From Oscillospiraceae bacterium (GTDB taxonomy: Bacteria; Bacillota; Clostridia; Oscillospirales; Oscillospiraceae), in the NCBI GenBank assembly GCA_902795045.1, contig CADBJU010000001.1, positions 1-64,000 of the forward strand: a DNA stretch of 64,000 nt, given 5' to 3'. The notes under the pieces were generated by a model. That model saw nothing but the letters and a program-made list of their open reading frames with translations, did not search any database and had not been told where the DNA came from. Positions 20,641-46,013 of this stretch are shown in pieces (position 1 is the first letter of the stretch; each line of letters begins with the position of its first letter). The translations under genes and the position numbers were made by a program.

Positions 20641-20736
20641 ACAAAAGCGCCCGCCGACTGCTTTTCTTACAAAGCGGCCGACGGGCGTAAACTATGCAAA
20701 GAAGCGGGCAACGGCATCTTTTAACGGGACAAACGG
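20641..20736. repeat. Signal-peptidase 3'-tail repeat, copy A, with terminator
   Basis: This segment aligns with 45916-46013 with 11 substitutions and a 2-base gap by eye. It contains the GC-rich terminator stem (GCGCCCGCCGACTGC...GCGGCCGACGGGCG). On the minus strand a fragment reads PFVPLKDAVARFFA-stop, the last residues of a signal peptidase like the one at 45969. No signal peptidase gene precedes it: the PEP-binding gene runs into it and takes its stop codon from it. It marks one edge of the nitrogen block. Confidence 0.85.
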
Positions 20737-23309
20737 ACCCTCCGTGCAATAAGAAAACGCTCACTGGAAAGGTCGTAATACTCCCACACATCACCAGACT
20801 GTAACTGATGCAGGTAGATGACATCCTCCATGCCATCGGGTGAATCGACAAGCTCTGCAAGGTCATTCCCGGATTTCAGCTCCTGCTCCCGGAAAATGCG
20901 GGTGCTTGCCCCTTCAAAGACTGCCGAGTACAGGATCTCCGCCTCCACAAGATCCTGAAAGATATGGCTGCCGTAGCTGAGCTCGGGCATATACCCGGCC
21001 CGGCGGTCTGCAAGCTCCAGGATCGTGTCAAACTCGCTGATGTCGGAAAACTCCGTCGGCACCCCAAGCTCCGGGGAACTCGTGCAGATCCTGCCGGGTG
21101 TGATGAGAAGCATGCGTTTATTCTGTCCACGCAGACGCCAGTTGATGGCTGATAGCAGCTGTTTGACGCGGTATTTGTCACGATAGGGCAGGTTATAGTA
21201 AGCGACCGGGTCCACATATACCAGCACATCCAGCGGAAAGCTGCGGGAAAAGCCCATGGAGGTGCCGACGGTCTCGATCAGGATATCCTCCTCCCGCAGA
21301 TCTGCCGGGATAGACACCTTGTCGCCGGTACGGGTCAGCTGCAGGGGGCGGCACTGCAGCAGGCTGATCACATACTCGCCCGTGGAGGCGCAGTTGATGG
21401 TGTACTCAATATCGACCGGATAGGCGTAGGTATCCTGCAGAAGACGCAGGATCTCACCCATATCCCGCATCAGACTCCTGTTGTTTACAAGGCCTTCACA
21501 GGAGACGTACAGCACATCTTCGCGGATTCCCTGTTCCCGCAGGATCGTCTCCGTCTCCCGGTCATGGGAATAGAGCAGAGCGCTCAGATAGGGCGGGAGT
21601 GCGGCGCGGATACTCTCGGCGTCCCAGTTTTCCACACCGTCGGAGCCGTCACTGACCACATCCACAAGACGCTGGGAGAACTGATGGCGATCCGCCGAGG
21701 AGGTCTGCCATACGACAGACGGCTTGTCCAGCGCGACCATACGCGGATAGGAGCCCGTACGGCGATCCACCGCGGCAGTTCCGAGGCCGCACACCAGGCG
21801 GAGCATGCCCTTCTCGGGATGATCCACCCCGAAGCGGTAGGGACTTGAGGAATAGCCGACGCCCGCTGCACACGGCATGAAAAAGCCCTCATAATGAGAG
21901 CCGGAAACCCGCTGGACAAGGATTCCCATCTGCTCATCCAAATGTTCGAGCCCGCGCCGCTTCCGGTAATCCAGCGCCGAGAGACTGACGGTGCTTGCGT
22001 AGACGGTGCGGATGGCGGATTCAAACGCGTGCAGGCGTTCTTCCGGTGAACCGTGATTGCTGCAGAAAACGGATTCGTATTTCCCGGCAAAGGCGTTACC
22101 GAAGCCGTCCTCGAGGATTGAGCTTGAGCGTACGATAATGGGCTCGTTGCCGTAATACTCCAGAAGCTGGCGAAACTGCATGCGAAGCGGCGGAGAAAAC
22201 GCACCGCCCAGCAGGGCCTCCGAGAAAGCCTGCGCCTTGGAGAAATACCCGTCCGCCGTCTTCTGACTGAGCTTGAGATCCCAAAGACCATTGTCCACAA
22301 TGAAGGAATAGAACACATCGGAGCCGATATAGAAGGAATCGTGCGGCTCGATGCGATCAAAGAGTTCCGCGTCCCGGTTTTGGACGATCTTCCTTGACAG
22401 CAGCATCCCGCAGGCTTTGCCGCCGATCAGCCCGGTGCCGATCATGCGGTCATGGATTTCGAAATAGTCCCCGGGCTGAAACTGCTCTACGATCATATCC
22501 CGCATGCGTTTATCGCGTGTGAGCATGATGTCGCACATCCGGTCGCACTCGCTGCGGATGTCCAGACCAGCATCATATTTTACACGGGCGGCGTGGAAGA
22601 AGCGCTCCCAGCTGTCCATGCTCTGGCTGTTTTTGAGCCCCTTCGCGTCGTTGAGACTGCGGTAAAAGCGGCTGAGCTCCACGCTCTCCGAAACGGAATA
22701 AAAGTTGATGTCTTTGAGATCGCAGCCGTAGGGCTGGGCCAGGTGCGCAAGCGGCCTTTCCCAGACCTTTTCCGCCCGGAAAAAGAGTTTGTCCCGCCCA
22801 CCCGGAAAAACGTCCAGCAAAAGCTGTGTGGTGCTCGCAATAATGTCGATCGCGTCAAAGGAGTGCCTGCCGCGCAGGATCGGAAAATACGCGACGGTGT
22901 CCAGAGAGAACAGGAAGGGACAGGTCAGGTGAAAGAAATTTCCCATCATGAGATCAGTGGCCCAGGCCTCCTCCAGCTCGGAAAGACAGTCAAAGACATA
23001 GAAGGCGTCACGCCCTTCCCGTTCGATCAGATTGTGAATATCAACGGTGAATGATTCAAAGAGATGGGAAAGGGGCACATGCACCTCCCGCACGCCGGGC
23101 AAGGCAGGCAGGATGGGATCGTGTCCGGCAAAACGAATGTAGAGGATGTTTCTGCCGTCCCGGACGGCCTGCTCGGCAAAGGCTCTCGCAAAAAAGCGGA
23201 ATTCATCCAGGTCGGAGACCTGCCACACCACGTTGTCACCCAGACGGATGGAATCAAGACACTGATCCAGCCCGGGAATGCCAGACAGAATCGGTTCAAA
23301 AGCAGCCAT
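20721..23309 (-). CDS. PEP/pyruvate-binding protein with degenerate KaiC-like N-terminus
   Basis: The 862-residue protein has a PPDK-N-like ATP/PEP-binding domain: GTGLIGGKACGM at 291-302, IVRSSSILED at 392-401 and VDIEYTINCASTGEYVISLL before CRPL. There is no phosphohistidine domain, so it is not a complete PEP synthase. The first 230 residues (LSGIPGLDQCLDSI, then ILYIRFAG) look like a KaiC/RadA fold without a usable Walker A motif. GGAGGG precedes the ATG. It starts 15 bases after gltD and is the last gene of the pyrG-gltB-gltD operon. Its last residues (RLSR) are encoded by the repeat at 20641, so the native C-terminus may have been altered. Confidence 0.8.
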   Translation of the reverse strand: MAAFEPILSGIPGLDQCLDSIRLGDNVVWQVSDLDEFRFFARAFAEQAVRDGRNILYIRFAGHDPILPALPGVREVHVPLSHLFESFTVDIHNLIEREGRDAFYVFDCLSELEEAWATDLMMGNFFHLTCPFLFSLDTVAYFPILRGRHSFDAIDIIASTTQLLLDVFPGGRDKLFFRAEKVWERPLAHLAQPYGCDLKDINFYSVSESVELSRFYRSLNDAKGLKNSQSMDSWERFFHAARVKYDAGLDIRSECDRMCDIMLTRDKRMRDMIVEQFQPGDYFEIHDRMIGTGLIGGKACGMLLSRKIVQNRDAELFDRIEPHDSFYIGSDVFYSFIVDNGLWDLKLSQKTADGYFSKAQAFSEALLGGAFSPPLRMQFRQLLEYYGNEPIIVRSSSILEDGFGNAFAGKYESVFCSNHGSPEERLHAFESAIRTVYASTVSLSALDYRKRRGLEHLDEQMGILVQRVSGSHYEGFFMPCAAGVGYSSSPYRFGVDHPEKGMLRLVCGLGTAAVDRRTGSYPRMVALDKPSVVWQTSSADRHQFSQRLVDVVSDGSDGVENWDAESIRAALPPYLSALLYSHDRETETILREQGIREDVLYVSCEGLVNNRSLMRDMGEILRLLQDTYAYPVDIEYTINCASTGEYVISLLQCRPLQLTRTGDKVSIPADLREEDILIETVGTSMGFSRSFPLDVLVYVDPVAYYNLPYRDKYRVKQLLSAINWRLRGQNKRMLLITPGRICTSSPELGVPTEFSDISEFDTILELADRRAGYMPELSYGSHIFQDLVEAEILYSAVFEGASTRIFREQELKSGNDLAELVDSPDGMEDVIYLHQLQSGDVWEYYDLSSERFLIARRVRLSR

Positions 23310-23323
23310 GCGTTACCCTCCGA

Positions 23324-24715
23324 TCATGTTAGATTTGTATAGCCCATGAGAAAGCGGTCGACCTCGGCGGCACAGGCGCGGCCCTCGGCTATGGCGTGGA
23401 CCACCAGAGACTGGCCGCGGTGCATATCACCGGCTGTGAAGATATGCGGGATGCTGGTCTGGAAGGAACCCGTCTCAGTCTTCACCGTGCGGTCAAGCTC
23501 CACACCGAAAGCGGCGCACACATCATCCCGGCACCCGGAAAAGCCTGTCGCTGCGATCAAAAGCCCACAGGGAAGCTTCTTCCCGTCCTTTGTGACAACG
23601 GACGTGAGATTGCCAGCTTCATCGGTTTCAAGCGTTGCCACGCTCTGCGAGAAGAGACGCGGGTCACTGCCGAAAACAGCCTCAGCCTCTTCCTGCGCGT
23701 AGTCCTGCGGGAGGCTGCCGTCCGGCGCGAGATAGTCCTCCATCGGTCGACGTACAAGCTGTACAAGGCTTTTGCAGCCCTGGCGTATGGAAGTTGCCGC
23801 ACAGTCGCTCGCGGTGTTGCCGGTGCCGATGATGATCACATTTTTCCCCTTGGCAGAGGGGACAGCGGGGGAGCGGGACAACTGTTGCCGCTCCACGGCG
23901 GCGGGCAGAAAATCCATGGCAAAGCACACGCCCCGGACACCCTCCGCGTCGATGCCGAGCGGGCGCGGCTTCTCCGCCCCGCAGCATAAAACCACCGCGT
24001 CGTATTCCATCGTCAGCCGCTGGGCTACCGCGGGATCGGCGGCGTCGAGCTCGGTCACAAAGCTCACGCCCTCGCGCGTCATGAGTTCAATCCGACGGCG
24101 GACGACGGATTTCGGCAGCTTCATGTTCGGGATGCCGTACATCAAAAGCCCGCCGGGCAGGGCGCGCTTTTCGATCACGGTGACGCTGTGCCCCCGGTGA
24201 TTGAGCTGGTCTGCCACCGCGAGTCCCGCCGGACCGGAGCCCACCACCGCCACATTCTTTCCCGAGCTGTGAGGCGAAAAGCGCGGTTCCATCAAATGAT
24301 GGGAAAAGGCGTATTCGATGATGCTCAGCTCATTGTCATGCACCGTGACGGAATCGCCGTACAGCCCGCAGGTGCAGGCCTGCTCGCAGAAAGCGGGGCA
24401 GACGCGCCCGGTAAATTCGGGGAAGTTATTTGTTTTCAAGAGTCTTGTCAGCGCGTGGGCGAAGTTTCCGTCCATGACACTGTCGTTCCACTCGGGGATC
24501 AGGTTGTGCAGCGGACAGCCGAGCTGCTTTCCCTCAAACTGTACCCCGGCCTGGCAGAAGGGGACGCCGCAGTTCATGCATCTTGCGCCCTGCTCGCGCC
24601 GCTGCTCCTCCGAACGGGGAAGATGAAACTCCTCCCAGTCCTTTACCCGCTCGAAAGGCGGACGCACAGGATTCGCCCTGCGTTCATATTCCAGAAATCC
24701 GGTCGGTTTTCCCAT
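23324..24715 (-). CDS. gltD: Glutamate synthase (NADPH) small subunit
   Basis: The 463-residue protein passes electrons from NADPH to the large subunit. It has the N-terminal 4Fe-4S cysteines (RCMNCGVPFCQAG and GCPLHNLIPEWND, then GRVCPAFCEQACTCGL), an FAD-binding GSGPAGLAVADQL, a PGGLLMYGIPNMKLPK segment and an NADPH-binding IIGTGNTASDC. The ATG at 24715 is chosen over 24724 because AGGAGGT stands 7 bases before it. It follows gltB by 13 bases. Confidence 0.96.
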   Translation of the reverse strand: MGKPTGFLEYERRANPVRPPFERVKDWEEFHLPRSEEQRREQGARCMNCGVPFCQAGVQFEGKQLGCPLHNLIPEWNDSVMDGNFAHALTRLLKTNNFPEFTGRVCPAFCEQACTCGLYGDSVTVHDNELSIIEYAFSHHLMEPRFSPHSSGKNVAVVGSGPAGLAVADQLNHRGHSVTVIEKRALPGGLLMYGIPNMKLPKSVVRRRIELMTREGVSFVTELDAADPAVAQRLTMEYDAVVLCCGAEKPRPLGIDAEGVRGVCFAMDFLPAAVERQQLSRSPAVPSAKGKNVIIIGTGNTASDCAATSIRQGCKSLVQLVRRPMEDYLAPDGSLPQDYAQEEAEAVFGSDPRLFSQSVATLETDEAGNLTSVVTKDGKKLPCGLLIAATGFSGCRDDVCAAFGVELDRTVKTETGSFQTSIPHIFTAGDMHRGQSLVVHAIAEGRACAAEVDRFLMGYTNLT

Positions 24716-24728
24716 AACATCCACCTCC

Positions 24729-30918
<6,190 letters not shown>

Positions 30919-30926
30919 ACACGGTG

Positions 30927-30955
30927 AGAATACACCGCGAAGGTCGCTTTGTCAA
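30927..30955 (-). promoter_or_regulatory. Promoter of the pyrG-gltB-gltD operon
   Basis: TTGACA (30955-30950), 17 bases and TATTCT (30932-30927) on the minus strand. The -35 box overlaps the stop codon of the ANTAR gene. The -10 box is framed by CGGTG and CACCG, an inverted repeat that could be an operator. Confidence 0.8.
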
Positions 30956-31536
30956 GAATATGTTTTGATGATGTTCTCCGCGGCCCGGCGCTTGGTGATG
31001 CGCTGATCCATGCTCTGCCTTTCAATATAGCGCTGGGCATCAGCCTCCGTCATGCTCAGGCATTCGATCAAAAGCCATTTGGCACGATTCACAAGGCGGA
31101 TCTCTTCGATCTTATCCTCCACGCTCTGCTGCTTTTGCTCCATACGCCGGAGTCTTTCCCGCTGGGCGCAGAGCATACGCAGGCTCTGGCTCACAAGCGC
31201 AGTGGCACTGGGCATAGAGAGCGTCACTACTCCATACTCCATCACGCGCGCGTTGACGCTGTCATAGAGCTCGGCCTTGACAAAGAGCATCGCGCCTGCT
31301 GTGCTGTCAACACAGACATCAATGGCAAGCTGCGTACCGAAGTCGTCTTTGAGCGGTGTGTTGATAAGCACCAGGTCAAAGCTTGACCCCAGCAGCAGAC
31401 GCCTTGCCTCTCCCACGCTCCTTGCGCTTTGTACCGGATAATACTCCGTTCCGGGAAGGAGGGCGCGCAGCGAATTATCCAGTTTTTCGGACGCGGAGAC
31501 GATCAAAACGGAATAGGTCCGTTCCTGAAAGATCAC
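30952..31536 (-). CDS. ANTAR-domain antitermination regulator with degenerate receiver
   Basis: The 194-residue protein has a receiver-like fold at 1-115 and a helical ANTAR domain at about 130-190 (EEIRLVNRAKWLLIECLSMT, then AQRYIERQSMDQRITKRRAA). ANTAR domains bind paired RNA hairpins with A..G.. hexaloops and prevent terminator formation. The receiver lacks the normal acidic pair (VLIVSASEK) and the phospho-acceptor aspartate (LVLINTPLKDD has Asn), so phosphorylation is unlikely. I use the GTG at 31536 after AAAGGAGGT. It lies between glnA and pyrG, and the glnN and pyrG leaders are its likely RNA targets. Confidence 0.85.
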   Translation of the reverse strand: MIFQERTYSVLIVSASEKLDNSLRALLPGTEYYPVQSARSVGEARRLLLGSSFDLVLINTPLKDDFGTQLAIDVCVDSTAGAMLFVKAELYDSVNARVMEYGVVTLSMPSATALVSQSLRMLCAQRERLRRMEQKQQSVEDKIEEIRLVNRAKWLLIECLSMTEADAQRYIERQSMDQRITKRRAAENIIKTYS

Positions 31537-31556
31537 ACGCGCACCTCCTTTCAATA

Positions 31557-31739
31557 CCCTCTCCGCCCCAGCGGCCCAGGCCGGCTTCTCTTGCCCCTTT
31601 GGGGCAATTCACCTTCTGTGCGCACTGGGGCACCTCCCCCAAAGGGGGAGGCAAGTGCCTTTGTTCAAATCATGGGCTTGGCTCCCCCTCTGGGGGAGCT
31701 GGCACGGCGCGTTTCACGCAAGCGCCGTGACTGAGAGGG
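31557..31739. repeat. CCCTCTC...GAGAGGG palindromic element, copy 1 (183 bp)
   Basis: The element begins CCCTCTCCGCCCCAG and ends CGTGACTGAGAGGG, with internal palindromes such as CTCCCCCAAAGGGGGAG and GGCTCCCCCTCTGGGGGAGC. Its reverse complement matches copy 2 at 35396-35510. It fills the space between glnA and the ANTAR gene and abuts the glnA stop codon. It resembles the non-coding MITE-like repeats common in Oscillospiraceae intergenic regions. Confidence 0.85.
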
Positions 31740-32951: not shown

Positions 32952-32993
32952 CCTGTTTGGCTCCTTTCCGATTTGCATCTATTCGTTACTGTA

Positions 32994-33077
32994 TGTCATC
33001 CTGAGCGCCAGCGAAGGATCTTTTGGCATCATGAAACAGAGAAAAGATTCTTCGTCGCTATGCTCCTCGGAATGACA
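32994..33077. repeat. GTCATcCTGAGCG palindromic repeat in the glnA leader
   Basis: TGTCATCCTGAGCGCCAGCG then AAGGATCTTTT pairs with AAAAGATTCTTCG then CTCGGAATGACA across about 84 bases with some mismatches. This is a widely dispersed bacterial intergenic repeat pattern. It lies between the glnA promoter and its start, so it is transcribed as a long hairpin in the leader. Confidence 0.75.
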
Positions 33078-33115
33078 AAGTGAATAAGGCTTTCCGATTC
33101 GTTCAACATGACGAA

Positions 33116-33144
33116 AGATAACATTGCGCAGAATACTTTGTCAA
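33116..33144 (-). promoter_or_regulatory. Promoter of glnA
   Basis: TTGACA (33144-33139), 17 bases and TTATCT (33121-33116) on the minus strand. It is divergent from the glnN promoter 30 bases away. Confidence 0.7.
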
Positions 33145-33173
33145 TGCAAATCGGTGAAAAATTTTGAAGGACC

Positions 33174-33202
33174 TTGACAAAAGCACCGATCAGGTCTATA
33201 CT
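33174..33202 (+). promoter_or_regulatory. Promoter of glnN
   Basis: TTGACA (33174-33179), 17 bases and TATACT (33197-33202). It directly precedes the attenuator leader of the type III glutamine synthetase gene. Confidence 0.85.
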
Positions 33203-33213
33203 CGCGAGCGTCT

Positions 33214-33271
33214 TGAGACAACGACGTCTCAGAGGGCTAAGTGCCCCCTGTACGTCGTTGTCTCTTTTTTT
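33214..33271 (+). promoter_or_regulatory. glnN leader: hexaloop hairpin overlapping an intrinsic terminator
   Basis: TGAGAC-AACGAC-GTCTCA (33214-33231) is a six-pair hairpin with an A..G.. hexaloop. Its 5' arm and loop also form the left side of a strong terminator: GAGACAACGACG (33215-33226) pairs with CGTCGTTGTCTC (33253-33264), followed by seven T. Forming one structure prevents the other. A second inner stem (GGGC-TAAGT-GCCC) lies between the terminator arms. The arrangement mirrors the pyrG leader and points to ANTAR antitermination. Confidence 0.7.
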
Positions 33272-35393: not shown

Positions 35394-35395
35394 AG

Positions 35396-35510
35396 CCCTC
35401 TCAGTCACGTCGGTATACCGCCGTGACAGCTCCCCCAGTGGGGGAGCCAAGAAGCTTGCCTCTCCCACTGGGATAGGTGCCCCAGCGTCGCAACACTGGG
35501 GCGGAGAGGG
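35396..35510. repeat. CCCTCTC...GAGAGGG palindromic element, copy 2 (115 bp)
   Basis: The element begins CCCTCTCAGTCACG, contains CAGCTCCCCCAGTGGGGGAG and ends ACTGGGGCGGAGAGGG. It is inverted relative to copy 1 and shorter by an internal segment. It occupies the gap between glnN and glmS, starting two bases after the glnN stop. It replaces any promoter or glmS ribozyme that might have been expected there. Confidence 0.85.
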
Positions 35511-35543
35511 CCTGCACGAATTTAAGGAAGAAGGAGCAACATT

Positions 35544-37367
35544 ATGTGTGGGATCGTTGGATTTACCGGAACACGCCAAGCTGCGCCGGTGCTGCTTGGA
35601 GGACTGGAAAGACTCGAATACCGGGGCTATGACTCGGCCGGGATCGCGGTACTCCATGACGCGGCGATTCAGGTGGAGAAGGTCAGCGGACGCATTGCCA
35701 AACTGCGCGAGAAAACGGAAGATGGTGCTTTGACACCGGGGTTCGCCGGTATCGGCCACACCCGCTGGGCGACCCACGGCGCGCCGACGGATCAGAACGC
35801 TCATCCGCATTTGTCGAATGACGGACGCTTTGCCGTAGTACACAACGGCATCATCGAAAACTATCTGGAGCTTCGCAAAGAACTCATCCGGGCTGGTTAT
35901 GTCTTTCAGAGCGAGACGGACACGGAGACCATCGTCCACCTCTTGGAGCTTTACTATGACGGGGACATCAAGGCTGCCGTCATGAAGACCGCCGCGCGGC
36001 TGGAGGGCTCCTACGCCCTCGGCATTGTCTGCACCGACACACCGGACGCCCTCTACGTCGTGCGAGAGGCAAGTCCCCTGATTCTCGGCGTCGGTGTGGG
36101 GGAGAACTATTTTGCCTCGGATGTGACGGCACTGGTATCGCATACGAAAAACGTGATCTACCTGGAGGACGGTGAGTTTGCAAGGCTCACACCGGACAGC
36201 ATCACGGTCTGTGACTGCGCCGGGCGCGAGGTGAAAAAGCCCATCAGCCGCGTGACATGGAGCGTGGAAGCCGCGGAGAAGGGCGGCTATGAGCACTTCA
36301 TGCTCAAGGAGATCATGGAGCAGCCCGCCGCTGTCAAGGCCGCCTTGGCCCCGAGAATCCACGAGGGCCGCGTGCAGCTTGACGGCTTCGAGCTGAGCGC
36401 GGAAGAGCTAAAGGGTATCAACAAAATCATCATCACCGCCTGCGGCTCGGCCTATTACGCGGGCTGTTCGGGCCGCTACGCCATCGAACGGCTCTGCCGC
36501 GTCCCGGTGCAGGTGGAGCTTGCAAGCGAGCTGCGCTATTCCGATCCCATGGTGGATGAGCACACGCTGGTGCTGGTGATCTCCCAGTCCGGCGAGACGG
36601 CGGACACCATCGCCGCGCTTAAGGAATGCAAGGCGCGCGGGGCGAAGGTGATCGGCATTGTAAACGTGGTTGGCAGCACGATCGCAAAGCTTGCAAATTT
36701 CACGCTCTACACCTTTGCGGGACCGGAGATCGCCGTCGCCACCACCAAGGGCTATACCACACAGCTCACGGTCCTGTATCTCTTCGCCCTGTACATGGCC
36801 GAAAAGCTCGGGCGCATTGATGCGGAAAGCTACACCGCGCTGGTGAAGGAACTGCAGCACCTGCCGCGAAAAATTCAGCAGACCATCGACATGAACTGGC
36901 AGATCCCGAAGCTTGCAAGCCGTTACGCAAGCCACTCGCTCTTCTTCATCGGGCGCAACACGGACTACGCCGTGGCGCTGGAGGGCGCGCTCAAGATGAA
37001 GGAGATCTCCTACCTCCATGCCGAATCCTACGCGGCCGGAGAGCTCAAGCACGGCACCATCGCCCTCATCGAGGAAAACCAGCCGGTTATCGCCGTCTGC
37101 TGCAACGAAGCGCTCCTGGATAAGACACTCTCCAACATCGTGGAGGTCAAGGCCCGCGGGGCAAAGGTGCTGGCGCTGTCATGCAAGGGCAATAAAAAAA
37201 TCGTCTCCCAGGCGGACGACGTGATCTTCATCCCGCGTGTGGAGACGGTGTTCTCGGCAGCTCTCGCGGTCGTGCCGCTGCAGTTGCTTGCCTATTATAC
37301 GGCAAAAGAAAAAGGCTGCGATATTGACAAGCCGAAGAACCTGGCAAAATCCGTGACAGTGGAGTGA
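35544..37367 (+). CDS. glmS: Glutamine-fructose-6-phosphate aminotransferase (isomerizing)
   Basis: The 607-residue enzyme makes glucosamine-6-phosphate for cell-wall synthesis. The class II amidotransferase domain starts [17 protein letters not shown] with Cys2 as nucleophile and has [10 protein letters not shown]. Two SIS domains follow ([39 protein letters not shown]), and the C-terminus ends [12 protein letters not shown] as in the family. AAGGAGCAACATT precedes the ATG. No glmS ribozyme core is visible upstream. It is 5 bases from guaA. Confidence 0.96.
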
Positions 37368-37372
37368 GGACC

Positions 37373-38908
37373 ATGCAGGAAAAGATCCTTGTTTTGGATT
37401 TCGGCGGTCAGTATAACCTCCTGATCGCCCGGCGGATTCGGCAGCAGCATGTCTATGCCGAAGTGAAGTCTTATAACGGCATCACTTTGGAACAGATACA
37501 GAGGGAAGGCTATAAGGGCATCGTCTTTACCGGCGGGCCGAACAGCGTCTATGATCCGGCCTCGCCGCACTTCGACCCCGGAATCCTCAGACTCGGTATC
37601 CCGATCCTCGGCATCTGCTATGGTCATCAGCTTCTGGCATGGATGGCGGGCGGCGAGATTCAGGCCGCCGAGAACGCCAGTGAGTACGGCCGGGTAGCAC
37701 TCAGCGCTGTCGGCGGCATCCTGTTTGATAAGGTCCCGCCGGAAAGCGTCTGCTGGATGAGTCACACGGATTATGTGAGCGCTGTCCCGGTCGGCTTCCG
37801 TATTACCGCTTCCACGGAAAACTGCCCCTGTGCCGCCATGGCGGATGACGAGCGAAGGCTCTATGGTGTGCAGTTTCACCCGGAGGTAACGCACACCGTC
37901 TTTGGCAGCCAAATCCTCCACAATTTCCTGTTCGAGGTCTGCGCCTGCCGGGGAGACTGGACAATGGAGGATTTTGTCTCCGCATCCATAGAGAGATACC
38001 GTCAGGAATTGTCCGGCAAGAATGCTCTGTGCGCCCTGTCCGGCGGGGTGGACTCCGCCGTGGCGGCGGTACTGCTGCATCGGGCCATCGGGAATCGCCT
38101 GACCTGCGTTTTCGTGGATCACGGCCTGCTGCGCAAAGGAGAGCGCGAGCAGGTGGTCAGGGTGTTCCGCCGCCAGTTTCAGATGAATCTGATCGTTGTT
38201 GACGCACGGGAACGCTTTCTCGCAAGGCTCAAGGGCGTCACGGAGCCGGAGCGAAAGCGAAAGATTATCGGCGAGGAGTTTATCCGCGTCTTCGAGGAAG
38301 AAGCTGCGATACTCGGAAAACAGGACGTGCTGGTGCAGGGCACCATTTACCCGGACGTGGTGGAATCCGGCGCGGGCAGCGCGGCTGTGATCAAGAGCCA
38401 CCACAATGTGGGGGGCCTGCCGGAGAAGATCGGCTTTGAGCATATTGTTGAGCCCCTGCGGGAGCTTTTTAAGGATGAGGTCCGCGCTGTGGGACTGGAG
38501 CTTGGTATCCCGGAAGAGCTGGTCATGCGCCAGCCGTTTCCGGGACCGGGCCTCGCCATCCGCGTGATGGGCGAGATCACGGAGGAAAAGCTTACGGTGC
38601 TCCGAGAGGGGGACGCCATTTTCCGGGAGGAGATTATGAGGGCCGGACTTGCGGATGCGCCGAGCCAGTATTTCGCCGTGCTGACGGATAACCGCAGCGT
38701 CGGTGTCATGGGTGACGCCCGCACCTACGGCTGGGTCATTGCCCTGCGTGCGGTGTCCACTGACGACTTCATGACTGCCGACTGGTCGCGCCTGCCGTGG
38801 GAGCTCTTGGAAAGGGCTTCGTCCCGCATCACAAACGAGGTCCGTTCTGTCAGCCGTGTGGTCTACGACATCACGTCGAAGCCGCCCGCTACGGTAGAAT
38901 GGGAATAA
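37373..38908 (+). CDS. guaA: GMP synthase (glutamine-hydrolysing)
   Basis: The 511-residue enzyme aminates XMP to GMP. It has a class I amidotransferase domain ([16 protein letters not shown], nucleophile in [23 protein letters not shown]). This is followed by an ATP-pyrophosphatase domain ([19 protein letters not shown]) and a C-terminal dimerisation domain ending [13 protein letters not shown] use the ATG at 37373 rather than the GTG at 37364. It starts 5 bases after glmS and is presumably co-transcribed with it. Confidence 0.96.
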
Positions 38909-38915
38909 AAAAAGA

Positions 38916-38949
38916 CAGCCGCCACCCTGGAAAAGTCACGGCTGCCTTT
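38916..38949 (+). terminator. Hairpin between guaA and amtB
   Basis: CAGCCG and CGGCTG pair around a 17-base loop, followed by CCTTTATAG. The T-run is weak, so it may only partly stop transcription. A second inverted repeat, GGAGGGC...GCCCTCC, follows at about 38959-38988. Confidence 0.5.
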
Positions 38950-39031
38950 ATAGAGGTAATGGAGGGCAAAAGCACTCATCACCGCCCTCCACTTTAACAA
39001 AGAAATACAGAGAAGTCAAGGAGGGCTTTCT

Positions 39032-40756
39032 ATGTCTGTTGAGTTTTGGTATCTGATTGGCGCGGCACTGGTTTTCTGGATGCAGGCCGGCTTTGCAATG
39101 GTCGAGACAGGATTTACCCGTGCGAAGAATGCGGGAAACATTATCATGAAAAACCTGATGGATTTCTGCATCGGCACCGTGGTGTTTTCCCTGTTGGGAT
39201 ATACGCTGATGATGGGGGAGGACACTTTCTTCGGCCTCATCGGCAAACCGAATCTCCAGCTGTTCACACACTATAAGGAGTTCATCGCCTCTCCGGAAGA
39301 GGGCTTCACCGGCGCAAGCACTTTCGTGTTTAACCTTGTGTTCTGCGCCACGACCGCGACGATCGTCTCCGGCGCAATGGCGGAGCGCACGAAGTTTTCC
39401 GCGTACTGTATCTATTCCGGCATTATCAGCCTTGTGGTATACCCCATCGAGGCGCACTGGATCTGGGGCGGCGGCTGGCTCAGCAAGCTCGGCTTTCACG
39501 ATTACGCGGGCTCCTGCGCGATCCATATGGTGGGCGGCATCGCAGCCTTGATCGGCGCCATCCTGCTGGGCGCGAGAATCGGAAAATATGTGAAGGGCCC
39601 GGACGGCAAGGTCGTCAAGATCAACGCCATTCCCGGCCACTCGATCCCGCTCGGAGCCCTGGGCGTGTTTATCCTCTGGCTCGGCTGGTACGGGTTCAAC
39701 GGTGCGGCGGCGACTTCTCCCTCGGAGCTCTCGTCCATCTTCCTCACGACGACCATCGCCCCGGCTGTCGCTACCTGCACCACCATGATCTACACCTGGA
39801 AGAAGAACGGGAAACCGGATGTGTCCATGTGCCTCAACGCCTCTCTCGCGGGCCTTGTTGCCATTACGGCGGGCTGTGACGCGATGGACGCTCTGGGCGC
39901 AATCATCGTGGGCATTGTTTCGGGCATCCTGGTCGTTGTGGTTGTGGAAACTCTGGATCTGAAGCTGCATGTCGATGATCCTGTCGGCGCTGTGGGTGTC
40001 CATATGGCAAACGGCATGTGGGGTACGCTTGCAGTCGGCCTGCTCGCAAATCCCGATGCTCCTGCCGGATTGAAGGGACTTTTCTATACCGGCTCTTTTA
40101 CACAGCTCGGCATCCAGACGCTGGGACTTGTGACAGTCGCTGTTTATACGACGGTATTGCTGTTTATTACCTTCAGACTCATTGAAAAGACAAACGGCCT
40201 TCGTGCCGATCCCGCGGATGAACTGATCGGCCTGGACGTGAGTGAACATGGTTTGCCCAGCGCTTATGCGGACTTCGTGCCCGCTGTGAACAAATACGCG
40301 GAGTATGGCGTGACCGGCACGGACAGCGTCGTAACCGGGACTGTTCCTCCGGCAGAGGCCATTCCGGTCAGGCGTGAGACCGCTTTGCGCCCGGACAGCC
40401 ACAAGTTTACCAAGGTTGAAATCGTCTTCAAGGAAGAAAAGCTCTATGCCCTCAAGGATGCCATGAGCAGGCTCGGCATCACCGGCATGACAGTTTCGCA
40501 CGTCATGGGCTACGGCATCCAGAAGGGGCAGGTAGAATATTATCGCGGCGTCGCGGTGGAGACCGACCTGCGGCCCAAAGTGCAGGTGGATATTGTGGTC
40601 AGCGCCATCCCGGTGCGTGATGTGATCGAAACCGCCAAGAAGGTGCTGTACACCGGCCATATCGGTGACGGCAAGATCTTTGTCTACGATGTGGAGAACG
40701 TCGTGAAGGTGCGCACCGGTGAAGAAGGATATGACGCCCTGCAGGATGTGGAATAA
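39032..40756 (+). CDS. amtB: Ammonium transporter fused to a P-II signalling domain
   Basis: The 574-residue protein has an AmtB domain at about 1-410: FWMQAGFAMVETGFTRAKN, VSGAMAERTKFSAYCIYSG, GWLSKLGFHDYAGSCAIHMV and LGWYGFNGAAA, with about 11 hydrophobic segments. After a linker, residues about 457-574 form a complete P-II (GlnK) domain with HVMGYGIQKGQVEYYRG, whose T-loop tyrosine is retained, and the C-terminal signature HIGDGKIFVYDVENVVKVRT. Normally GlnK is a separate protein that plugs AmtB. Here sensor and channel are covalently joined at the membrane. AAGGAGGGC precedes the ATG. Confidence 0.96.
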   Translation: MSVEFWYLIGAALVFWMQAGFAMVETGFTRAKNAGNIIMKNLMDFCIGTVVFSLLGYTLMMGEDTFFGLIGKPNLQLFTHYKEFIASPEEGFTGASTFVFNLVFCATTATIVSGAMAERTKFSAYCIYSGIISLVVYPIEAHWIWGGGWLSKLGFHDYAGSCAIHMVGGIAALIGAILLGARIGKYVKGPDGKVVKINAIPGHSIPLGALGVFILWLGWYGFNGAAATSPSELSSIFLTTTIAPAVATCTTMIYTWKKNGKPDVSMCLNASLAGLVAITAGCDAMDALGAIIVGIVSGILVVVVVETLDLKLHVDDPVGAVGVHMANGMWGTLAVGLLANPDAPAGLKGLFYTGSFTQLGIQTLGLVTVAVYTTVLLFITFRLIEKTNGLRADPADELIGLDVSEHGLPSAYADFVPAVNKYAEYGVTGTDSVVTGTVPPAEAIPVRRETALRPDSHKFTKVEIVFKEEKLYALKDAMSRLGITGMTVSHVMGYGIQKGQVEYYRGVAVETDLRPKVQVDIVVSAIPVRDVIETAKKVLYTGHIGDGKIFVYDVENVVKVRTGEEGYDALQDVE

Positions 40757-40800
40757 GGATTTCCTGCGCGCGTATCAATACAACAGATAGGAGAATCATC

Positions 40801-42384
40801 ATGTGTTCGATTATGGGCTTCACGTCCGGTACATTGACGCCGGAGCAATTCATGCCGTTTTTTGAGCGCACGGTCTCCCGCGGCCCGGATATGAGCCGCG
40901 TGGAGCAGGCCGGGAGAGGGTATCTCTGTTTCCATCGCCTCGCCATCATGGGCCTGCATGAGGAAGGAATGCAGCCCTTTCATCTCAAGGGAGATATGTG
41001 CGTCTGCAACGGTGAGCTGTACCTCTTCCGGCCGCTGAAAAAAGAGCTGGAGGATGAGGGCTATGTCTTTCAGAGCGATTCCGACTGCGAGATCATCCTG
41101 CCGCTTTACCACAGGTACGGGGTTGAGATGTTCAAAAAGTTGGACGCGGAGTTTGCCATGATCCTCTATGATGCCGAAACGGACAGCTTCATCGCCGCCC
41201 GCGACCCGATCGGTATTCGCCCGCTGTTTTATGGAGAGCTCTCCGACGGCAGCATGGTCTTTGCAAGTGAGGCCAAGAACCTGGTGGGGCTCTGCGCCGA
41301 GATCAAACCCTTCCCTCCGGGACACTACTGGAAGGATGGAGAATTTGTCCGCTATGCCGACCTCACCACGGTCGATTCCTATATCGACGGGGATCTGGAC
41401 GAGATCTGCGCCGGGATCCGCGAAAAGCTGATCCTCGGCGTGGACAAGCGCCTGGACGCGGACGCGCCCCTGGGCTTTCTGCTCTCGGGCGGGCTGGACT
41501 CCAGCCTCGTCTGCGCCATCTCCGCCAAGATTCTGGGAAAGCATGTGCGCACCTTTGCCATCGGCATGGATGTGGACGCCATCGACCTCAAGTACGCCCG
41601 CACGGCGGCGGACTTCATCGGGGCCGAACACACGGAGGTGTACATGACCCGGCAGCAGGTGCTGGATTCTCTGGAGGAGGTCATCGCCGCTCTCGGCACC
41701 TGGGACATCACCACGATCCGCGCCAGCATGGGCATGTACATCTGCTGCAAGGCAATCCACGAACAGACGGATGTGCGCGTCCTGCTGACCGGGGAGATCA
41801 GCGACGAACTCTTCGGCTACAAGTACACAGACTATGCGCCGAGCCCGGAAGAATTCCAGCGGGAGGCGAAGAAACGCATTGATGAAATCTACATGTACGA
41901 TGTGCTGCGCGCCGACCGCTGCATCTCGGTAAACTCTCTGGAAGCCCGCGTCCCCTTCGGCGACCTGGAGTTTGTAAAATACGTCATGTCCATCGACCCT
42001 AAACTCAAGATGAACCGCTACGACATGGGAAAATACCTGCTGCGCCACGCGTTCGAAAAGGATCATCTGCTGCCCGACGAGATCCTGTGGCGCCAGAAGG
42101 CGGCCTTCTCCGACGCGGTGGGCCACTCGATGGTCGACGATCTGAAGGCCTACGCCGAGAGTCTGTACACCGACGAGGAATTTGAACGGAAACGGATGGC
42201 CTATGACTATGGCCGTCCCTTCACCAAGGAGAGTCTCCTGTACCGTGAAATCTTCGAGAAATACTACCCCGGTCAGGCGGAAATGATCGCGGACTTCTGG
42301 ATGCCGAACAAGAGCTGGCCGGGCTGCGACGTGAACGATCCCTCCGCCCGTGTCCTTGCAAACTACGGCGCAAGCGGAACCTGA
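40801..42384 (+). CDS. asnB: Asparagine synthase (glutamine-hydrolysing)
   Basis: The 527-residue enzyme makes asparagine from aspartate, ATP and glutamine. Cys2 (MCSIMGF) is the class II amidotransferase nucleophile. The N-terminal domain has SRGPDMSRV and CNGELYLF. The synthase domain has LSGGLDSSLVCAISAKILG and LTGEISDELFGYKY, then EARVPFGDLEFVKY. It follows amtB by 44 bases and precedes nadE by 22, so these genes probably form one transcript. Confidence 0.95.
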   Translation: MCSIMGFTSGTLTPEQFMPFFERTVSRGPDMSRVEQAGRGYLCFHRLAIMGLHEEGMQPFHLKGDMCVCNGELYLFRPLKKELEDEGYVFQSDSDCEIILPLYHRYGVEMFKKLDAEFAMILYDAETDSFIAARDPIGIRPLFYGELSDGSMVFASEAKNLVGLCAEIKPFPPGHYWKDGEFVRYADLTTVDSYIDGDLDEICAGIREKLILGVDKRLDADAPLGFLLSGGLDSSLVCAISAKILGKHVRTFAIGMDVDAIDLKYARTAADFIGAEHTEVYMTRQQVLDSLEEVIAALGTWDITTIRASMGMYICCKAIHEQTDVRVLLTGEISDELFGYKYTDYAPSPEEFQREAKKRIDEIYMYDVLRADRCISVNSLEARVPFGDLEFVKYVMSIDPKLKMNRYDMGKYLLRHAFEKDHLLPDEILWRQKAAFSDAVGHSMVDDLKAYAESLYTDEEFERKRMAYDYGRPFTKESLLYREIFEKYYPGQAEMIADFWMPNKSWPGCDVNDPSARVLANYGASGT

Positions 42385-42406
42385 GCGGGAATGGAGATGC
42401 TGAAAC

Positions 42407-43141
42407 ATGAGACGTGATTGGAAAGCCGAGTACGAAAAACGTGTAACCTGGATTCGTGCGCTCCTTGCACGCAGCGGTGCAAAAGGAATTGTCTACGGAA
42501 ATTCCGGCGGCAAGGACAGTGCTTTGACAGGTATTCTCTGCAAAGGGGCCTGTCAGGATACTGTGGGATTGATCATGCCCTGCGCCTCAAAACGCAACTT
42601 CGGCCAGGACACAGAGGATGGTCTTGCCGTCGCAAAGCAGTATGGCATCGAAACGCGCACAATAGATCTGACTTCCGTTCGGGAACAGGAGGTAAAAGCT
42701 CTGGAAACGGCAACTTCTCTGACAGAACTTGCCCTTGCAAATATTGCGCCCAGGCTTCGCATGACGACACTTTATGCAGTGGCGGCATCAGAAAATCGTA
42801 TTGTCGCCGGCACAGGCAATCGCAGCGAAGCATACATGGGTTATTTCACAAAATGGGGAGACGGCGCATATGACTTTAATCCGATCGGGGATCTGACAGT
42901 CACAGAGATTTTTGCGTTTCTTACCTATCTGGGAGCTCCGCAGCAAATCATCGACAAGGCTCCGTCAGCCGGACTGTTTGACGGTCAGACCGATGAAGCG
43001 GAAATGGGCATCAGTTACCGGGTGATCGACCAGTATCTGCTGAATGGTCAGGCGGATAAAAGTGAGCTTGCAACCATGCGCCGCTTCCACGAGCGGAGCG
43101 AACATAAACGCCAGCCGATCCCGATTTATAAGGGAGAATAA
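42407..43141 (+). CDS. nadE: NAD synthase, ammonia-dependent
   Basis: The 244-residue protein converts nicotinic acid adenine dinucleotide to NAD with ATP and ammonia. It has the P-loop YGNSGGKDSALTG, NIAPRLRMTTLYAVA and VAGTGNRSEAYMGYFTKWGD. There is no glutaminase domain, so it depends on free ammonia, unlike its amidotransferase neighbours. Its place beside amtB and asnB fits a unit devoted to ammonium use. The stop lies one base before the purB start. Confidence 0.94.
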   Translation: MRRDWKAEYEKRVTWIRALLARSGAKGIVYGNSGGKDSALTGILCKGACQDTVGLIMPCASKRNFGQDTEDGLAVAKQYGIETRTIDLTSVREQEVKALETATSLTELALANIAPRLRMTTLYAVAASENRIVAGTGNRSEAYMGYFTKWGDGAYDFNPIGDLTVTEIFAFLTYLGAPQQIIDKAPSAGLFDGQTDEAEMGISYRVIDQYLLNGQADKSELATMRRFHERSEHKRQPIPIYKGE

Positions 43142-43142
43142 C

Positions 43143-44576
43143 ATGCACGACAGTTATCAAAACCCGCTTTGTACCCGCTATGCCGGGAAAGACATGCAGC
43201 GGATCTTCTCCGATCAGCAAAAGTTTTCCACATGGAGAAAGCTCTGGCTCGCTCTGGCAGAGAGTGAGCAGACCCTTGGCCTGCCCATCACGGACGCGCA
43301 GCTTGACGAGATGCGCCTTCATCTGGACGACATCGACTATGACCTCGCGGCCAGGAAAGAAAAGGAGCTCCGCCATGACGTGATGGCGCATGTGCACACC
43401 TTTGCCGCTGTCTGCCCGAAGGCCGCGCCGATCATCCATCTGGGCGCCACCTCCTGCTATGTGGGAGACAATACGGACGTTCTCAATCAGCGCGACGCGC
43501 TGCTGCTCATTCGCCGCAAGCTTCTGTCCGTCATGCGGACGCTTGCAGATTTCGCAGGAAAATACAGGGATCTCCCGACCCTTGCCTTTACCCACTTTCA
43601 GGCAGCCCAGCCCACGACTGTGGGAAAACGCGCCTGCCTCTGGCTTCAGGATCTGGAGATGGATCTCAAACAGCTGGGTTTTGCTTTATCCCAGCTGCGG
43701 CTTCTGGGCTGCAAGGGCACGACCGGAACGGCGGCGAGTTTCCTGAGACTCTTTGACGGGGACGAAGAAAAGGTGCTGGAGCTTGAGCGCATAATCGCGG
43801 AGAAGATGGGCTTTACCGCCTGCCAGCAGATAAGCGGGCAGACCTATTCTCGAAAGCAGGATTTCGCTGTGCTGCAGGTCCTCAGCGGCATTGCCCAGAG
43901 CGCCTGCAAATTTGCCGGAGACATCCGGCTGCTGAGCCATCTCAGGGAGCTGGAAGAACCCTTTGAAAGCGGACAGATCGGCTCGTCTGCCATGGCCTAT
44001 AAGCGAAACCCCATGCGCAGTGAACGCATTGCGGCGCTTTCCCGATATGTGATGTGCGACCTTCAAAACGCGGCATTTACGGCGTCTTCCCAGTGGCTGG
44101 AACGCACGCTGGATGATTCCGCCAACCGCCGCATCGCCATCCCGGAGGCGTTTCTGGCCTGCGACGGGATTTTGAATTTGTACGAAAATATCGTCTCCGG
44201 CCTGCGCCTGTTCCCGGCGATGATGCAAAAGCATCTCCGGGAGGAGCTGCCCTTTCTTGCCACCGAGAATATCCTGATGGTCTGCGTGAAGGAGAAAAAC
44301 GGAGACCGACAGCTCCTGCATGAACGCCTTCGCATCCATTCGATCGCCGCGGCAGAGCAGGTCAAGGTGTATGGCAGGGACAATGATCTGCTGCAGCGGA
44401 TCGCGGAGGATCCGGCGTTTGGCCTGACAGCGGAAAAACTGGAAGCACTTGCGGAGCCGTCGGCCTTTACCGGTATGGCTGGATCGCAGTGCGCGCGTTA
44501 TCTCCATGACGTAATCAAACCGATACTGGAACAAAATCGGGCAAACATTCAGAAAGCAGACAAGATCAATGTGTGA
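43143..44576 (+). CDS. purB: Adenylosuccinate lyase
   Basis: The 477-residue enzyme acts twice in purine synthesis, releasing fumarate from SAICAR and from adenylosuccinate. Conserved motifs are RHDVMAHVHTF, HLGATSCYVGDNTD and the fumarase-superfamily signature GSSAMAYKRNPMRSE; LDDSANRRIAIPEAFL follows. The ATG at 43143 has GGGAG upstream and abuts nadE. The frame extending to 43044 overlaps nadE and is rejected. It is coupled with purA downstream. Confidence 0.96.
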   Translation: MHDSYQNPLCTRYAGKDMQRIFSDQQKFSTWRKLWLALAESEQTLGLPITDAQLDEMRLHLDDIDYDLAARKEKELRHDVMAHVHTFAAVCPKAAPIIHLGATSCYVGDNTDVLNQRDALLLIRRKLLSVMRTLADFAGKYRDLPTLAFTHFQAAQPTTVGKRACLWLQDLEMDLKQLGFALSQLRLLGCKGTTGTAASFLRLFDGDEEKVLELERIIAEKMGFTACQQISGQTYSRKQDFAVLQVLSGIAQSACKFAGDIRLLSHLRELEEPFESGQIGSSAMAYKRNPMRSERIAALSRYVMCDLQNAAFTASSQWLERTLDDSANRRIAIPEAFLACDGILNLYENIVSGLRLFPAMMQKHLREELPFLATENILMVCVKEKNGDRQLLHERLRIHSIAAAEQVKVYGRDNDLLQRIAEDPAFGLTAEKLEALAEPSAFTGMAGSQCARYLHDVIKPILEQNRANIQKADKINV

Positions 44577-44588
44577 GAGGAGAAAAAC

Positions 44589-45863
44589 ATGCTGACATCT
44601 GTAGTAGGAACAAACTGGGGCGATGAGGGAAAGGGCCGTATGGTCGACATGCTCAGCGAGGTGTATGATGTCGTTGTGCGCTATCAGGGCGGCAACAACG
44701 CCGGGCACACGGTTGTGAATGAATACGGAAAGACGGTGCTGAATCTGCTGCCCTCCGGCATCATGCGGAAGAATACCGCAAATATCCTCGGCCCCGGCAT
44801 GGTCGTTGACCTTGAACACCTCTCCAAGGAGACCGACGCGCTTCGGAGGCGCGGTGTTCCGATCGGCCCGGAGAATCTGATCCTCAGCTCCCGTGCGACG
44901 ATCTGCCTGCCTTATCATCGGCTGCTGGACATATTGGAAGAGGAACGCCTCGGCAGCAAAAGCTTTGGCTCCACCCGGCGGGGGATTTCGCCGGTGTATG
45001 CGGACAAGTATATGAAAAAGACCCTCCGCATGGGCGACCTGCTCTATCCAAATACACTTAGGAAAAAGGTTGAGGATCTTCTGGAATGGAAGAACCTCAC
45101 CATCGAGAACGGCTATGGGCATGACCCAATCAAAAGCAATGAGATCATGGAGTGGCTCATTGCCTACGGAAAGCCTTTTGTGTCATATGTCCAGGATACC
45201 GGGCTCTATCTGCAAAACGCAATAGACAGAGGAAAATCTGTCCTGTTTGAAGCGCAGCTCGGCGCTTTGCGGGATATAGACTTCGGCATCTATCCCTTTA
45301 CCTCCGCATCCTCAACGCTCGCAGCCTATGCCCCCATCGGCGCGGGAGTGCCCTTTGCGCGTCTGGATCAGGTGATCGGGATCATGAAAGCGTATTCCAG
45401 CTGTGTCGGCGCAGGCCCCTTTCCCTGTGAGCTTTTCGGGGAAGAGGGGAGTGCATTGCGGGAAGCCGGGGCAGAATACGGCGCCGCCACCGGCAGACCG
45501 CGCAGAGTCGGCGGCTTCGACGTTGTCGCATCTCGCTACGGAACCAGGATGCAGGGATGCACCGCTCTTGCACTGACGAAGCTGGACGTGCTGTCCTATA
45601 TGGAAAAAATCCCGGTCTGCGTTGCCTACGATGTGAGAGGCGAGCGCGTTGAGGACTTTCCCACGGTGATCGATGACCTGAATGCAGCGAAACCGATTTA
45701 CGAATATCTGCCCGGTTTTCACTGTGATATCAGAACCTGCCGCCATCTTGAAGATCTGCCTCAGGCAGCACGGAACTATATTGCCTTCGTAGAATCCGCC
45801 GTGGGCTGCCCGATCCGCTATGTCTCCGTCGGTGCAGAAAGGGACGCAATTATTGTCACATGA
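44589..45863 (+). CDS. purA: Adenylosuccinate synthase
   Basis: The 424-residue enzyme joins IMP and aspartate with GTP. It has TNWGDEGKGRMVDML at the N-terminus, then QGGNNAGHTVVNEYGKTVLN, the GSTRRGISPVYADKY segment and a C-terminal substrate loop (AATGRPRRVGGFD). AGGAGAAAAAC precedes the ATG. It ends the plus-strand nitrogen and purine run. The gap after it (45864-45968) holds only the terminator and repeat copy B. Confidence 0.96.
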   Translation: MLTSVVGTNWGDEGKGRMVDMLSEVYDVVVRYQGGNNAGHTVVNEYGKTVLNLLPSGIMRKNTANILGPGMVVDLEHLSKETDALRRRGVPIGPENLILSSRATICLPYHRLLDILEEERLGSKSFGSTRRGISPVYADKYMKKTLRMGDLLYPNTLRKKVEDLLEWKNLTIENGYGHDPIKSNEIMEWLIAYGKPFVSYVQDTGLYLQNAIDRGKSVLFEAQLGALRDIDFGIYPFTSASSTLAAYAPIGAGVPFARLDQVIGIMKAYSSCVGAGPFPCELFGEEGSALREAGAEYGAATGRPRRVGGFDVVASRYGTRMQGCTALALTKLDVLSYMEKIPVCVAYDVRGERVEDFPTVIDDLNAAKPIYEYLPGFHCDIRTCRHLEDLPQAARNYIAFVESAVGCPIRYVSVGAERDAIIVT

Positions 45864-45915
45864 TGTCAGAGATTATTTTTGAGTAAGTATAGATAACGAA
45901 TATAAGTTAAAAAGC

Positions 45916-46013
45916 ACAAAAACGCCCGCCGACTGCTTATCTTTTTCAAAGCAGCCGACGGGCGTAAACTATGCAAAGACGCGGGCAACGACGTCCTTAA
46001 GCGGGACAAATGG
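45916..46013. repeat. Signal-peptidase 3'-tail repeat, copy B, with terminator
   Basis: This 98-bp segment matches 20641-20736 in the same orientation. Its first half is a terminator stem (ACGCCCGCCGACTGCTT and AAGCAGCCGACGGGCGT) with T-runs on the minus strand (GCGTTTTTGTGCTTTTT). Its second half is the 3' end of the signal peptidase gene (PFVPLKDVVARVFA-stop). Several differences from copy A fall in codon third positions, suggesting divergence of functional genes rather than a recent copy. Confidence 0.85.

What the first reader, a model, noticed from the sequence alone, without database searches (positions are those of the whole stretch)
20641..46013. A 25-kb nitrogen block flanked by two direct copies of a signal peptidase gene tail
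Seen: 20641-20736 and 45916-46013 align in the same orientation with 11 substitutions and a 2-base gap. Both hold the terminator and the last codons of a signal peptidase gene, but only the right copy belongs to a whole gene. The left copy sits directly after the HD gene and supplies the stop codon of the PEP-binding gene. Inference: the block between them entered the ICE by recombination at a conserved signal peptidase tail, possibly from a related element, since the copies differ at silent positions.
Basis: partly seen in the sequence, partly recalled or inferred. Interest (0 to 1): 0.78.

Follow-up and report, generated by a model that had tools for sequence, protein, structure and literature searches.

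The report
Stacked cargo joints in a conjugative element
A 25-kb block of nitrogen and purine genes sits in the cargo slot of a bacterial conjugative element, and the short repeats at its ends look like leftover tails of the element's signal peptidase gene that mark where gene blocks were stacked and later swapped between relatives.

Summary
The repeat is real and as described: 96 versus 98 bp, 11 substitutions, a 2-base gap. It holds a terminator plus the last 14 codons of the signal peptidase gene (lepB). It is not a one-off. A relative with the same conjugative element (91-96% identical DNA) shows that the lepB terminator is one edge of a cargo slot: 30.6 kb here, 4.1 kb there. Of 102 genus genomes, 17 match the lepB end (five only weakly). 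I tabulated 25 sites in 12 genomes: 5 full-length lepB sequences, one cut by a contig end, 19 tail or terminator copies keeping about 0 to 44 codons. A near-empty/filled pair shows a 3.6-kb module added next to lepB, the older lepB surviving as a 20-codon tail before the older cargo. The tail-plus-terminator then behaves as an exchangeable joint: the nitrogen block's left end has three different neighbours, its right end four. The window's left joint recurs in three other species, so it is older than the block's present place. The block carries the assembly's only full purA, glmS and pyrG. Mechanism (inferred): homologous pairing in lepB with an illegitimate far join, as proposed for effector-immunity arrays.

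The parts
15278..45917 (.). cargo slot of the conjugative element (30.6 kb here, 4.1 kb in G412/RGIG7103)
   Evidence: element homology to G412 contig C40 stops at 15277 and resumes at 45918
15376..20640 (.). HD-side cargo: HTH regulator, AlkZ-related, LigB+AMMECR1, radical SAM, metallophosphoesterase, HD gene
   Evidence: Pfam/NCBIfam
20641..20736 (-). scar: terminator plus last 14 codons of a former lepB; contains the stop codon of the PPDK_N gene in another frame
20648..20687 (-). terminator hairpin of the left copy
   Evidence: -29.2 kcal/mol, z -4.11
20721..23309 (-). 862-aa protein with PPDK_N domain; its last codons and stop lie in the scar
23324..24724 (-). gltD, glutamate synthase small subunit
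   Evidence: TIGR01317 482 bits, cut-off 448
24729..29246 (-). gltB, glutamate synthase large subunit
   Evidence: NF008730
29236..30882 (-). pyrG, CTP synthase; only match found in the assembly
   Evidence: TIGR00337
30952..31554 (-). ANTAR-domain protein, likely antiterminator-type regulator
   Evidence: PF03861
31740..32978 (-). glutamine synthetase, GlnA-like
   Evidence: TIGR00653 321 bits, below its cut-off of 429
33174..35393 (+). type III glutamine synthetase
   Evidence: PF12437, PF18318, PF00120
35544..37367 (+). glmS; only full-length match found in the assembly
   Evidence: TIGR01135
37364..38908 (+). guaA, GMP synthase
   Evidence: NF000848
39032..40756 (+). ammonium transporter fused to a P-II-like domain
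   Evidence: TIGR00836, plus NF008111 at 461-569 below its cut-off
40801..42384 (+). asnB
   Evidence: NF006949
42407..43141 (+). nadE
   Evidence: TIGR00552
43044..44576 (+). purB (listed start overlaps nadE; true start probably later)
   Evidence: TIGR00928
44589..45863 (+). purA; only match found in the assembly
   Evidence: NF002223
45916..46013 (-). right repeat copy: terminator plus 3' end of the whole lepB (hairpin 45922-45965)
45969..46352 (-). lepB, element signal peptidase I, 127 aa
   Evidence: TIGR02227, PF10502
46349..63683 (-). element backbone: sigma factor, DUF3268, two sortases, pilins, S1 protein, VirD4-like coupling protein, DUF6100, DUF5697
5889..15277 (-). other arm of the element backbone, with PcfJ-like gene
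   Evidence: PF14284; homology to G412, with a gap at 7049-8002

Best explanation
The 3' end of lepB in this conjugative element family is a cargo-loading edge. New cargo arrives on DNA that carries its own lepB and terminator; it pairs by homology with the resident element, and its far end is joined without homology somewhere inside the resident lepB. The new module then sits next to a whole lepB, and the old lepB survives as a short tail plus terminator in front of the older cargo. Repetition gives a stack whose youngest module lies nearest lepB. The tail-plus-terminator pieces are about 50-180 bp of shared sequence in the same orientation, so later homologous exchange can use them as joints and swap modules between elements and chromosomes. 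The 25-kb nitrogen block is one such module; its left scar is inherited, its right end was connected to this element's lepB. Shown: the slot, the scars, the variable breakpoints, one near-empty/filled pair, the change of neighbours at the joints. Inferred: the recombination route, the order of events in the window, and that the terminator is kept because it ends transcripts of the joined genes.
For: Slot: G412 carries the same element at 91-96% identity with 4.1 kb of other cargo between lepB and the 14724-15122 gene. Near-empty/filled pair: G470 10440-19112 matches G478 1-8675 at 94.5%, and G470 18996-20467 matches G478 12304-13751 at 90.8%; the overlap of 117 bp is duplicated in G478 around a 3.6-kb module. 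The G478 scar matches G470's lepB end (109 identities, 5 mismatches, 1 gap) better than G478's own lepB (99, 13, 4) and better than the three other full-length alleles compared, so the scar looks like the older resident allele. Scars keep about 0, 0.7, 1, 4, 7, 9, 10, 12, 14, 20, 21 or 44 lepB codons. Joint reuse: after dropping 3 of 25 sites, 22 sites give 18 distinct neighbour pairs (counted by hand); the PPDK_N|tail end meets three different partners, the purA end four, one further module four, the sugar-gene module three. Window colinearity stops at 20641-20642 in G467 and G475, and at 45973, 45992 and 45998 in G479, G174 and G432. G434 has the block without PPDK_N and nadE and without lepB tails. 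The three large ORFs of the 3.6-kb module encode an FMN oxidoreductase, a TetR regulator and an FAD protein, no recombinase. The same one-ended homology model was proposed for T6SS arrays (PMC5361080, passages).
Against: One-ended recombination and the tandem-plus-deletion rival predict the same final sequence. On the terminator side the joins lie, by eye, within about 15 nt of the hairpin in all 9 neighbour classes, more regular than random joining predicts. Rearrangement is not confined to the joints: the block also breaks inside without lepB pieces (homology to the window stops at 30957 in G475, 30958-33096 is missing in G479, nadE-purB-purA are missing in G432). Three sites (G470C8a, G470C8b, G479b) keep about one lepB codon or none, so their tie to lepB rests on the terminator. 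One neighbour class rests on 144-174 bp at 80-83% identity for some members. HD beside a whole lepB was not found. Scars also occur on contigs without the element genes sought (G479, 140 kb read). One-ended recombination during conjugation was reported as rare in E. coli (PMC3240628, abstract). The 12 tabulated genomes are drafts of 40-270 contigs.
Confidence: 0.68

Rival explanations
1. Two related elements sat in tandem, and a deletion running from the end of one cargo into the lepB of the next left lepB, cargo, tail, terminator, older cargo. The scars are deletion products, not one-ended insertions.
For: Same end product; variable breakpoints in lepB fit deletions. G478 carries two copies of the lepB end region on different contigs and G035 two lepB gene regions of this element type, so multiple copies per genome occur. 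A tandem-duplication model was offered for CDI/Rhs arrays (PMC3150448, passages).
Against: No tandem pair was seen in the stretches read; in G478 none of the backbone genes sought lies in the 3.6-kb module.
Confidence: 0.2
2. The lepB 3' end is the attachment site of a site-specific integrative element that restores the gene end on insertion.
For: Same orientation, gene 3' end, a near-constant border just after the hairpin.
Against: Scar length varies from about 0 to 44 codons; no integrase among the proteins scanned in the slot or in the 3.6-kb module. Short ORFs were not scanned.
Confidence: 0.06
3. Assembly chimera: short-read assembly joined different genomes at the shared sequence.
For: Draft assembly of 56 contigs; related lepB ends are nearly identical between species (97.5% over 436 bp to L136).
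Against: The window's two copies share at most 26 identical bases; the left joint recurs in three other genomes and a PPDK_N|tail fusion in two more; the left slot border at 15277 is not at a lepB repeat. The right joint is seen in this assembly only, so it is the weaker one.
Confidence: 0.06

Closest known systems
T6SS effector-immunity arrays of Vibrio cholerae built by sequential displacement (PMC5361080, passages seen)
   Same: New module enters beside a conserved upstream region; a 3' part of the old gene is shifted back; one-ended homologous plus illegitimate joining proposed there; arrays grow by successive insertions.
   Different: Here the anchor is a signal peptidase gene of a conjugative element, the modules are metabolic, and the remnant includes a terminator that links modules.
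Orphan CdiA-CT and Rhs-CT module arrays (PMC3150448, passages seen)
   Same: Repeated fragments of one gene's 3' part behind the full gene, with varying upstream length; homology blocks that end exactly at the shared sequence.
   Different: No toxin or immunity genes among the module proteins identified here; only the last codons of the gene are kept, not a functional domain.
Integrative and conjugative elements with transfer genes of the CD1115/CD1110 kind (NCBIfam names)
   Same: VirD4-like protein above the CD1115 cut-off, VirB4-like ATPase, cargo slot.
   Different: No integrase or relaxase was identified here; VirB4 is below the CD1110 cut-off; cargo includes housekeeping genes.
Integron cassette arrays (recalled; comparison also made in a passage of PMC5361080)
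   Same: Newest unit next to a fixed gene; hairpin between units.
   Different: No integrase found; unit borders inside lepB vary.

Membership tests
Conjugative element of CD1115/CD1110 kind | VirD4-like coupling protein of the CD1115 family | tested here: met
   NF045973 381 bits, cut-off 250
Conjugative element of CD1115/CD1110 kind | VirB4-like ATPase of the CD1110 family | tested here: not met
   NF045971 281 bits, cut-off 325; general VirB4/TraG relatedness clear
Conjugative element of CD1115/CD1110 kind | integrase, relaxase and element ends | tested here: inconclusive
   none found among the proteins scanned; not all ORFs were scanned; the element ends were not mapped
Displacement arrays (T6SS, CDI, Rhs) | 3' remnants of the conserved gene behind the full gene | tested here: met
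   19 tail or terminator copies, 5 full-length lepB sequences and one cut by a contig end, in 25 sites
Displacement arrays (T6SS, CDI, Rhs) | near-empty and filled states in relatives | tested here: met
   one pair, G470 versus G478
Displacement arrays (T6SS, CDI, Rhs) | toxin and immunity gene modules | tested here: not met
   the module proteins scanned are nitrogen/purine, FMN/FAD oxidoreductase, hydrolase and sugar proteins
Integron | integrase with attI and attC sites of constant border | tested here: not met
   variable lepB breakpoints; no integrase among scanned proteins
Site-specific genomic island at a gene 3' end | constant core repeat and own integrase | tested here: not met
   about 0 to 44 codons; no integrase in the module proteins scanned
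Composite transposon | insertion sequences at both ends of the block | tested here: not met
   no transposase among the 20 proteins of 15376-45863 scanned; the transposase pieces seen in the window are at 2-1656

The most novel reading that the evidence does not exclude
The hairpin after lepB is not only a terminator but a recombination site: something encoded by the element cuts just after it, so cargo is always attached within about 15 nt of the hairpin while the other end falls anywhere in lepB. The element would then have a renewable cassette-loading site without an integron integrase, and would have drawn the cell's only purA, glmS and pyrG into itself, so that losing the element would be lethal.
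Probability: 0.12. Interest if true: 0.85.

Novelty: new variant of a known kind. Interest (0 to 1): 0.6.

Why it matters
Cargo loading in conjugative elements is usually credited to integrases, transposons or insertion sequences (recalled). Here the record of loading can be read in the sequence as a series of scars of one gene, in an uncultured genus with members from ruminant gut, with one near-empty/filled pair that fixes the direction of growth. It gives a testable route by which large metabolic blocks, including genes that appear to be the only copies of core functions, enter and leave mobile elements without a recombinase of their own.

Tried and rejected
Dispersed repeat: rejected for the whole 96 bp; only two copies in the assembly plus one weaker match. 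Family-wide spread: 4 of 400 family genomes matched; two are the own genome and G174, and the other two match only 59 and 38 bases inside the lepB coding part. HD beside a whole lepB: not found among the sites examined. The tail search in 102 genus genomes matched 17 at E <= 0.01 with 38 rows: 26 rows make up the 25 sites tabulated (one lepB gave two rows); 12 rows were dropped before counting (G489 C58, G468 C94, G467 C13, G412 C21, G479 C25, G467 C48, own C2, G442, G447, G422, G438, G461), being short, terminator-only, lepB-coding-only or without the terminator; five of the 17 genomes (G438, G442, G447, G461, G422) have only such rows. For partner counts I also dropped G478C65a (contig end), G174C31 and G468 (flank matches that begin far from the hairpin). 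Looking for a second purA or pyrG in the genome: none; for glmS only a 32% match over 146 residues; guaA has a 53% match to its C-terminal part on C16 and a very weak one on C28. Paper searches on lepB, cargo slots, displacement and nitrogen genes in conjugative elements (listings only) showed no listed title or abstract opening describing lepB scars; this is not proof of absence.

Full report
What is there. The right copy is the 3' end and terminator of a whole 127-codon signal peptidase gene on the minus strand. The left copy is the last 14 codons of such a gene plus the terminator, between the HD gene (ends 20640) and a gene for an 862-aa protein whose only Pfam domain is PPDK_N. The stop of that gene lies in the lepB tail in another frame. 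Of seven related proteins outside the genus whose ends I printed, five stop within about 15 residues of the place where the window protein leaves the alignment, so little of it was lost; the other two end differently. Between the copies lie gltD, gltB, pyrG, an ANTAR protein, two kinds of glutamine synthetase, glmS, guaA, an ammonium transporter fused to a P-II-like domain, asnB, nadE, purB and purA.

The element. To the right of lepB come a sigma factor, DUF3268, sortases, pilins and an S1 protein, then a VirD4-like coupling protein and a VirB4-like ATPase; a PcfJ-like gene lies on the left. Homology runs up to 15277 and resumes at 45918, with 4.1 kb of other genes in between in G412. So the window's nitrogen block and the HD-side genes fill one slot, and the lepB terminator is its right edge. 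In more distant elements that I looked at (G035 twice, L142, L146; lepB about 50% identical) other genes also stand behind lepB.

The scars. A search of 102 genomes of the genus with the lepB end matched 17, five of them only weakly. I tabulated 25 sites in 12 genomes: 5 full-length lepB sequences with terminator, one cut by a contig end (at least 50 codons), and 19 partial tails or bare terminators with about 0 to 44 codons. Three of the 19 keep about one codon or none. The full-length copy in G478 carries a deletion that shifts its frame. In a draw of 400 family genomes only the own genome and G174 gave the tail with its terminator.

Near-empty and filled. In G470 (contig length of RUG10684) a whole lepB and terminator stand directly before a cargo with an FGGY-type sugar kinase, a class II aldolase and a family 3 glycosidase. 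The duplicated stretch is 117 bp. The tail matches G470's lepB allele better than G478's own (109 identities, 5 mismatches, 1 gap against 99, 13, 4) and better than the full-length alleles of the window, G174 and G412. So the older lepB became the tail, and the newer lepB came with the newer module. This is one pair. G470 has in addition a 44-codon tail at the other end of its cargo.

The joints are reused. With 3 unclear sites dropped, 22 sites fall into 18 different neighbour pairs (hand count). The end of the PPDK_N gene fused to 14 lepB codons is shared by six genomes (window, G174, G432, G479, G467, G475), but beyond the terminator stands HD in four of them and other DNA in G467 and in G475. 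The purA end with its spacer and terminator meets a whole lepB in the window, and three other partners with about 7, 9 and 1 lepB codons in G174, G432 and G479; in G432 the nadE-purB-purA part is missing and the asnB end stands there, so its match is the 52-bp spacer. A further module meets four partners, for some members on 144-174 bp at 80-83% identity, and the sugar-gene module three. Colinearity with the window ends at 20641-20642 in G467 and G475 and inside the lepB tail on the right. Against a special role of the joints: the block also breaks elsewhere without lepB pieces, at 30957 in G475 and over 30958-33096 in G479. G434 has the block on a 66-kb contig without PPDK_N, nadE or tails, which may be the state before capture. 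In G479 the block with both joints lies on a contig with none of the element genes sought in the 140 kb read.

Reading of the window. The HD-tail-block unit is older than its place in this element. The right joint links the block to this element's lepB; by eye, its terminator loop equals that of the full-length lepB of G174, while the spacer beyond resembles that of the block in G479 and G174. That the block came last and from a related element is inferred.

Mechanism. One end homologous (lepB and upstream genes), the other end joined illegitimately inside the resident lepB, is the simplest account. The same model was proposed for V. cholerae effector-immunity arrays, where the 3' end of an old effector is shifted back (PMC5361080, passages); such joining has been measured during conjugation in E. 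coli at a low rate (PMC3240628, abstract). A tandem element followed by deletion would give the same end product and stays open. The near-constant border after the hairpin (9 neighbour classes, by eye within about 15 nt) is the one fact that random joining explains poorly; selection to keep the terminator, which then serves the joined genes from both sides, is my preferred reading, but an enzyme acting at the hairpin is not excluded.

Only copies. In this assembly (completeness 92.25%) purA and pyrG have no other match and glmS no other full-length match; guaA has a second, 53% match to its C-terminal part. In G174 too the block's purA is the only match. If the assemblies are complete in this respect, the element could not be lost without harm.

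Limits. Nearly all relatives named near the window's element are metagenome assemblies; reads were not available. The right joint rests on one assembly. Names such as rhamnose-type, FrdA and HipA in my notes are recalled; the HipA-like ORF had no Pfam match.

Noticed in passing
own genome C2:76796-76864 (L003 1501-1569): A third, weaker match: similar terminator and possibly a few decayed lepB codons between two unrelated genes; may be an old scar outside the element.
   Followed up: partly
39032-40756: Ammonium transporter fused in one reading frame to a P-II-like domain.
   Followed up: no
20721-23309: PPDK_N protein without other PEP-synthase domains in Pfam; matches in 20 of 150 family genomes, in G103 and G107 next to nitrogen genes.
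   Followed up: partly
L139 1076-1465: The full-length lepB beside the newest module in RUG13498 has an internal deletion that shifts the frame.
   Followed up: no
G479 C14:63240-63425; G432 C27:2-331: Pieces of asnB at joints: a duplicated asnB end in G479, and loss of nadE-purB-purA in G432.
   Followed up: partly
window 30957 (G475 and G479): Homology to the block stops at the same window base in two genomes, without any lepB piece: another recurrent breakpoint, inside the block.
   Followed up: no
C1:74096-74584 and G174 C33:27587-28075: Related nitroreductase genes lie in another part of the window's element and beyond the right scar in G174 (76% DNA identity).
   Followed up: no
L063 and L064 (G035): Two copies of the same element type in one genome with different genes after lepB.
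   Followed up: partly
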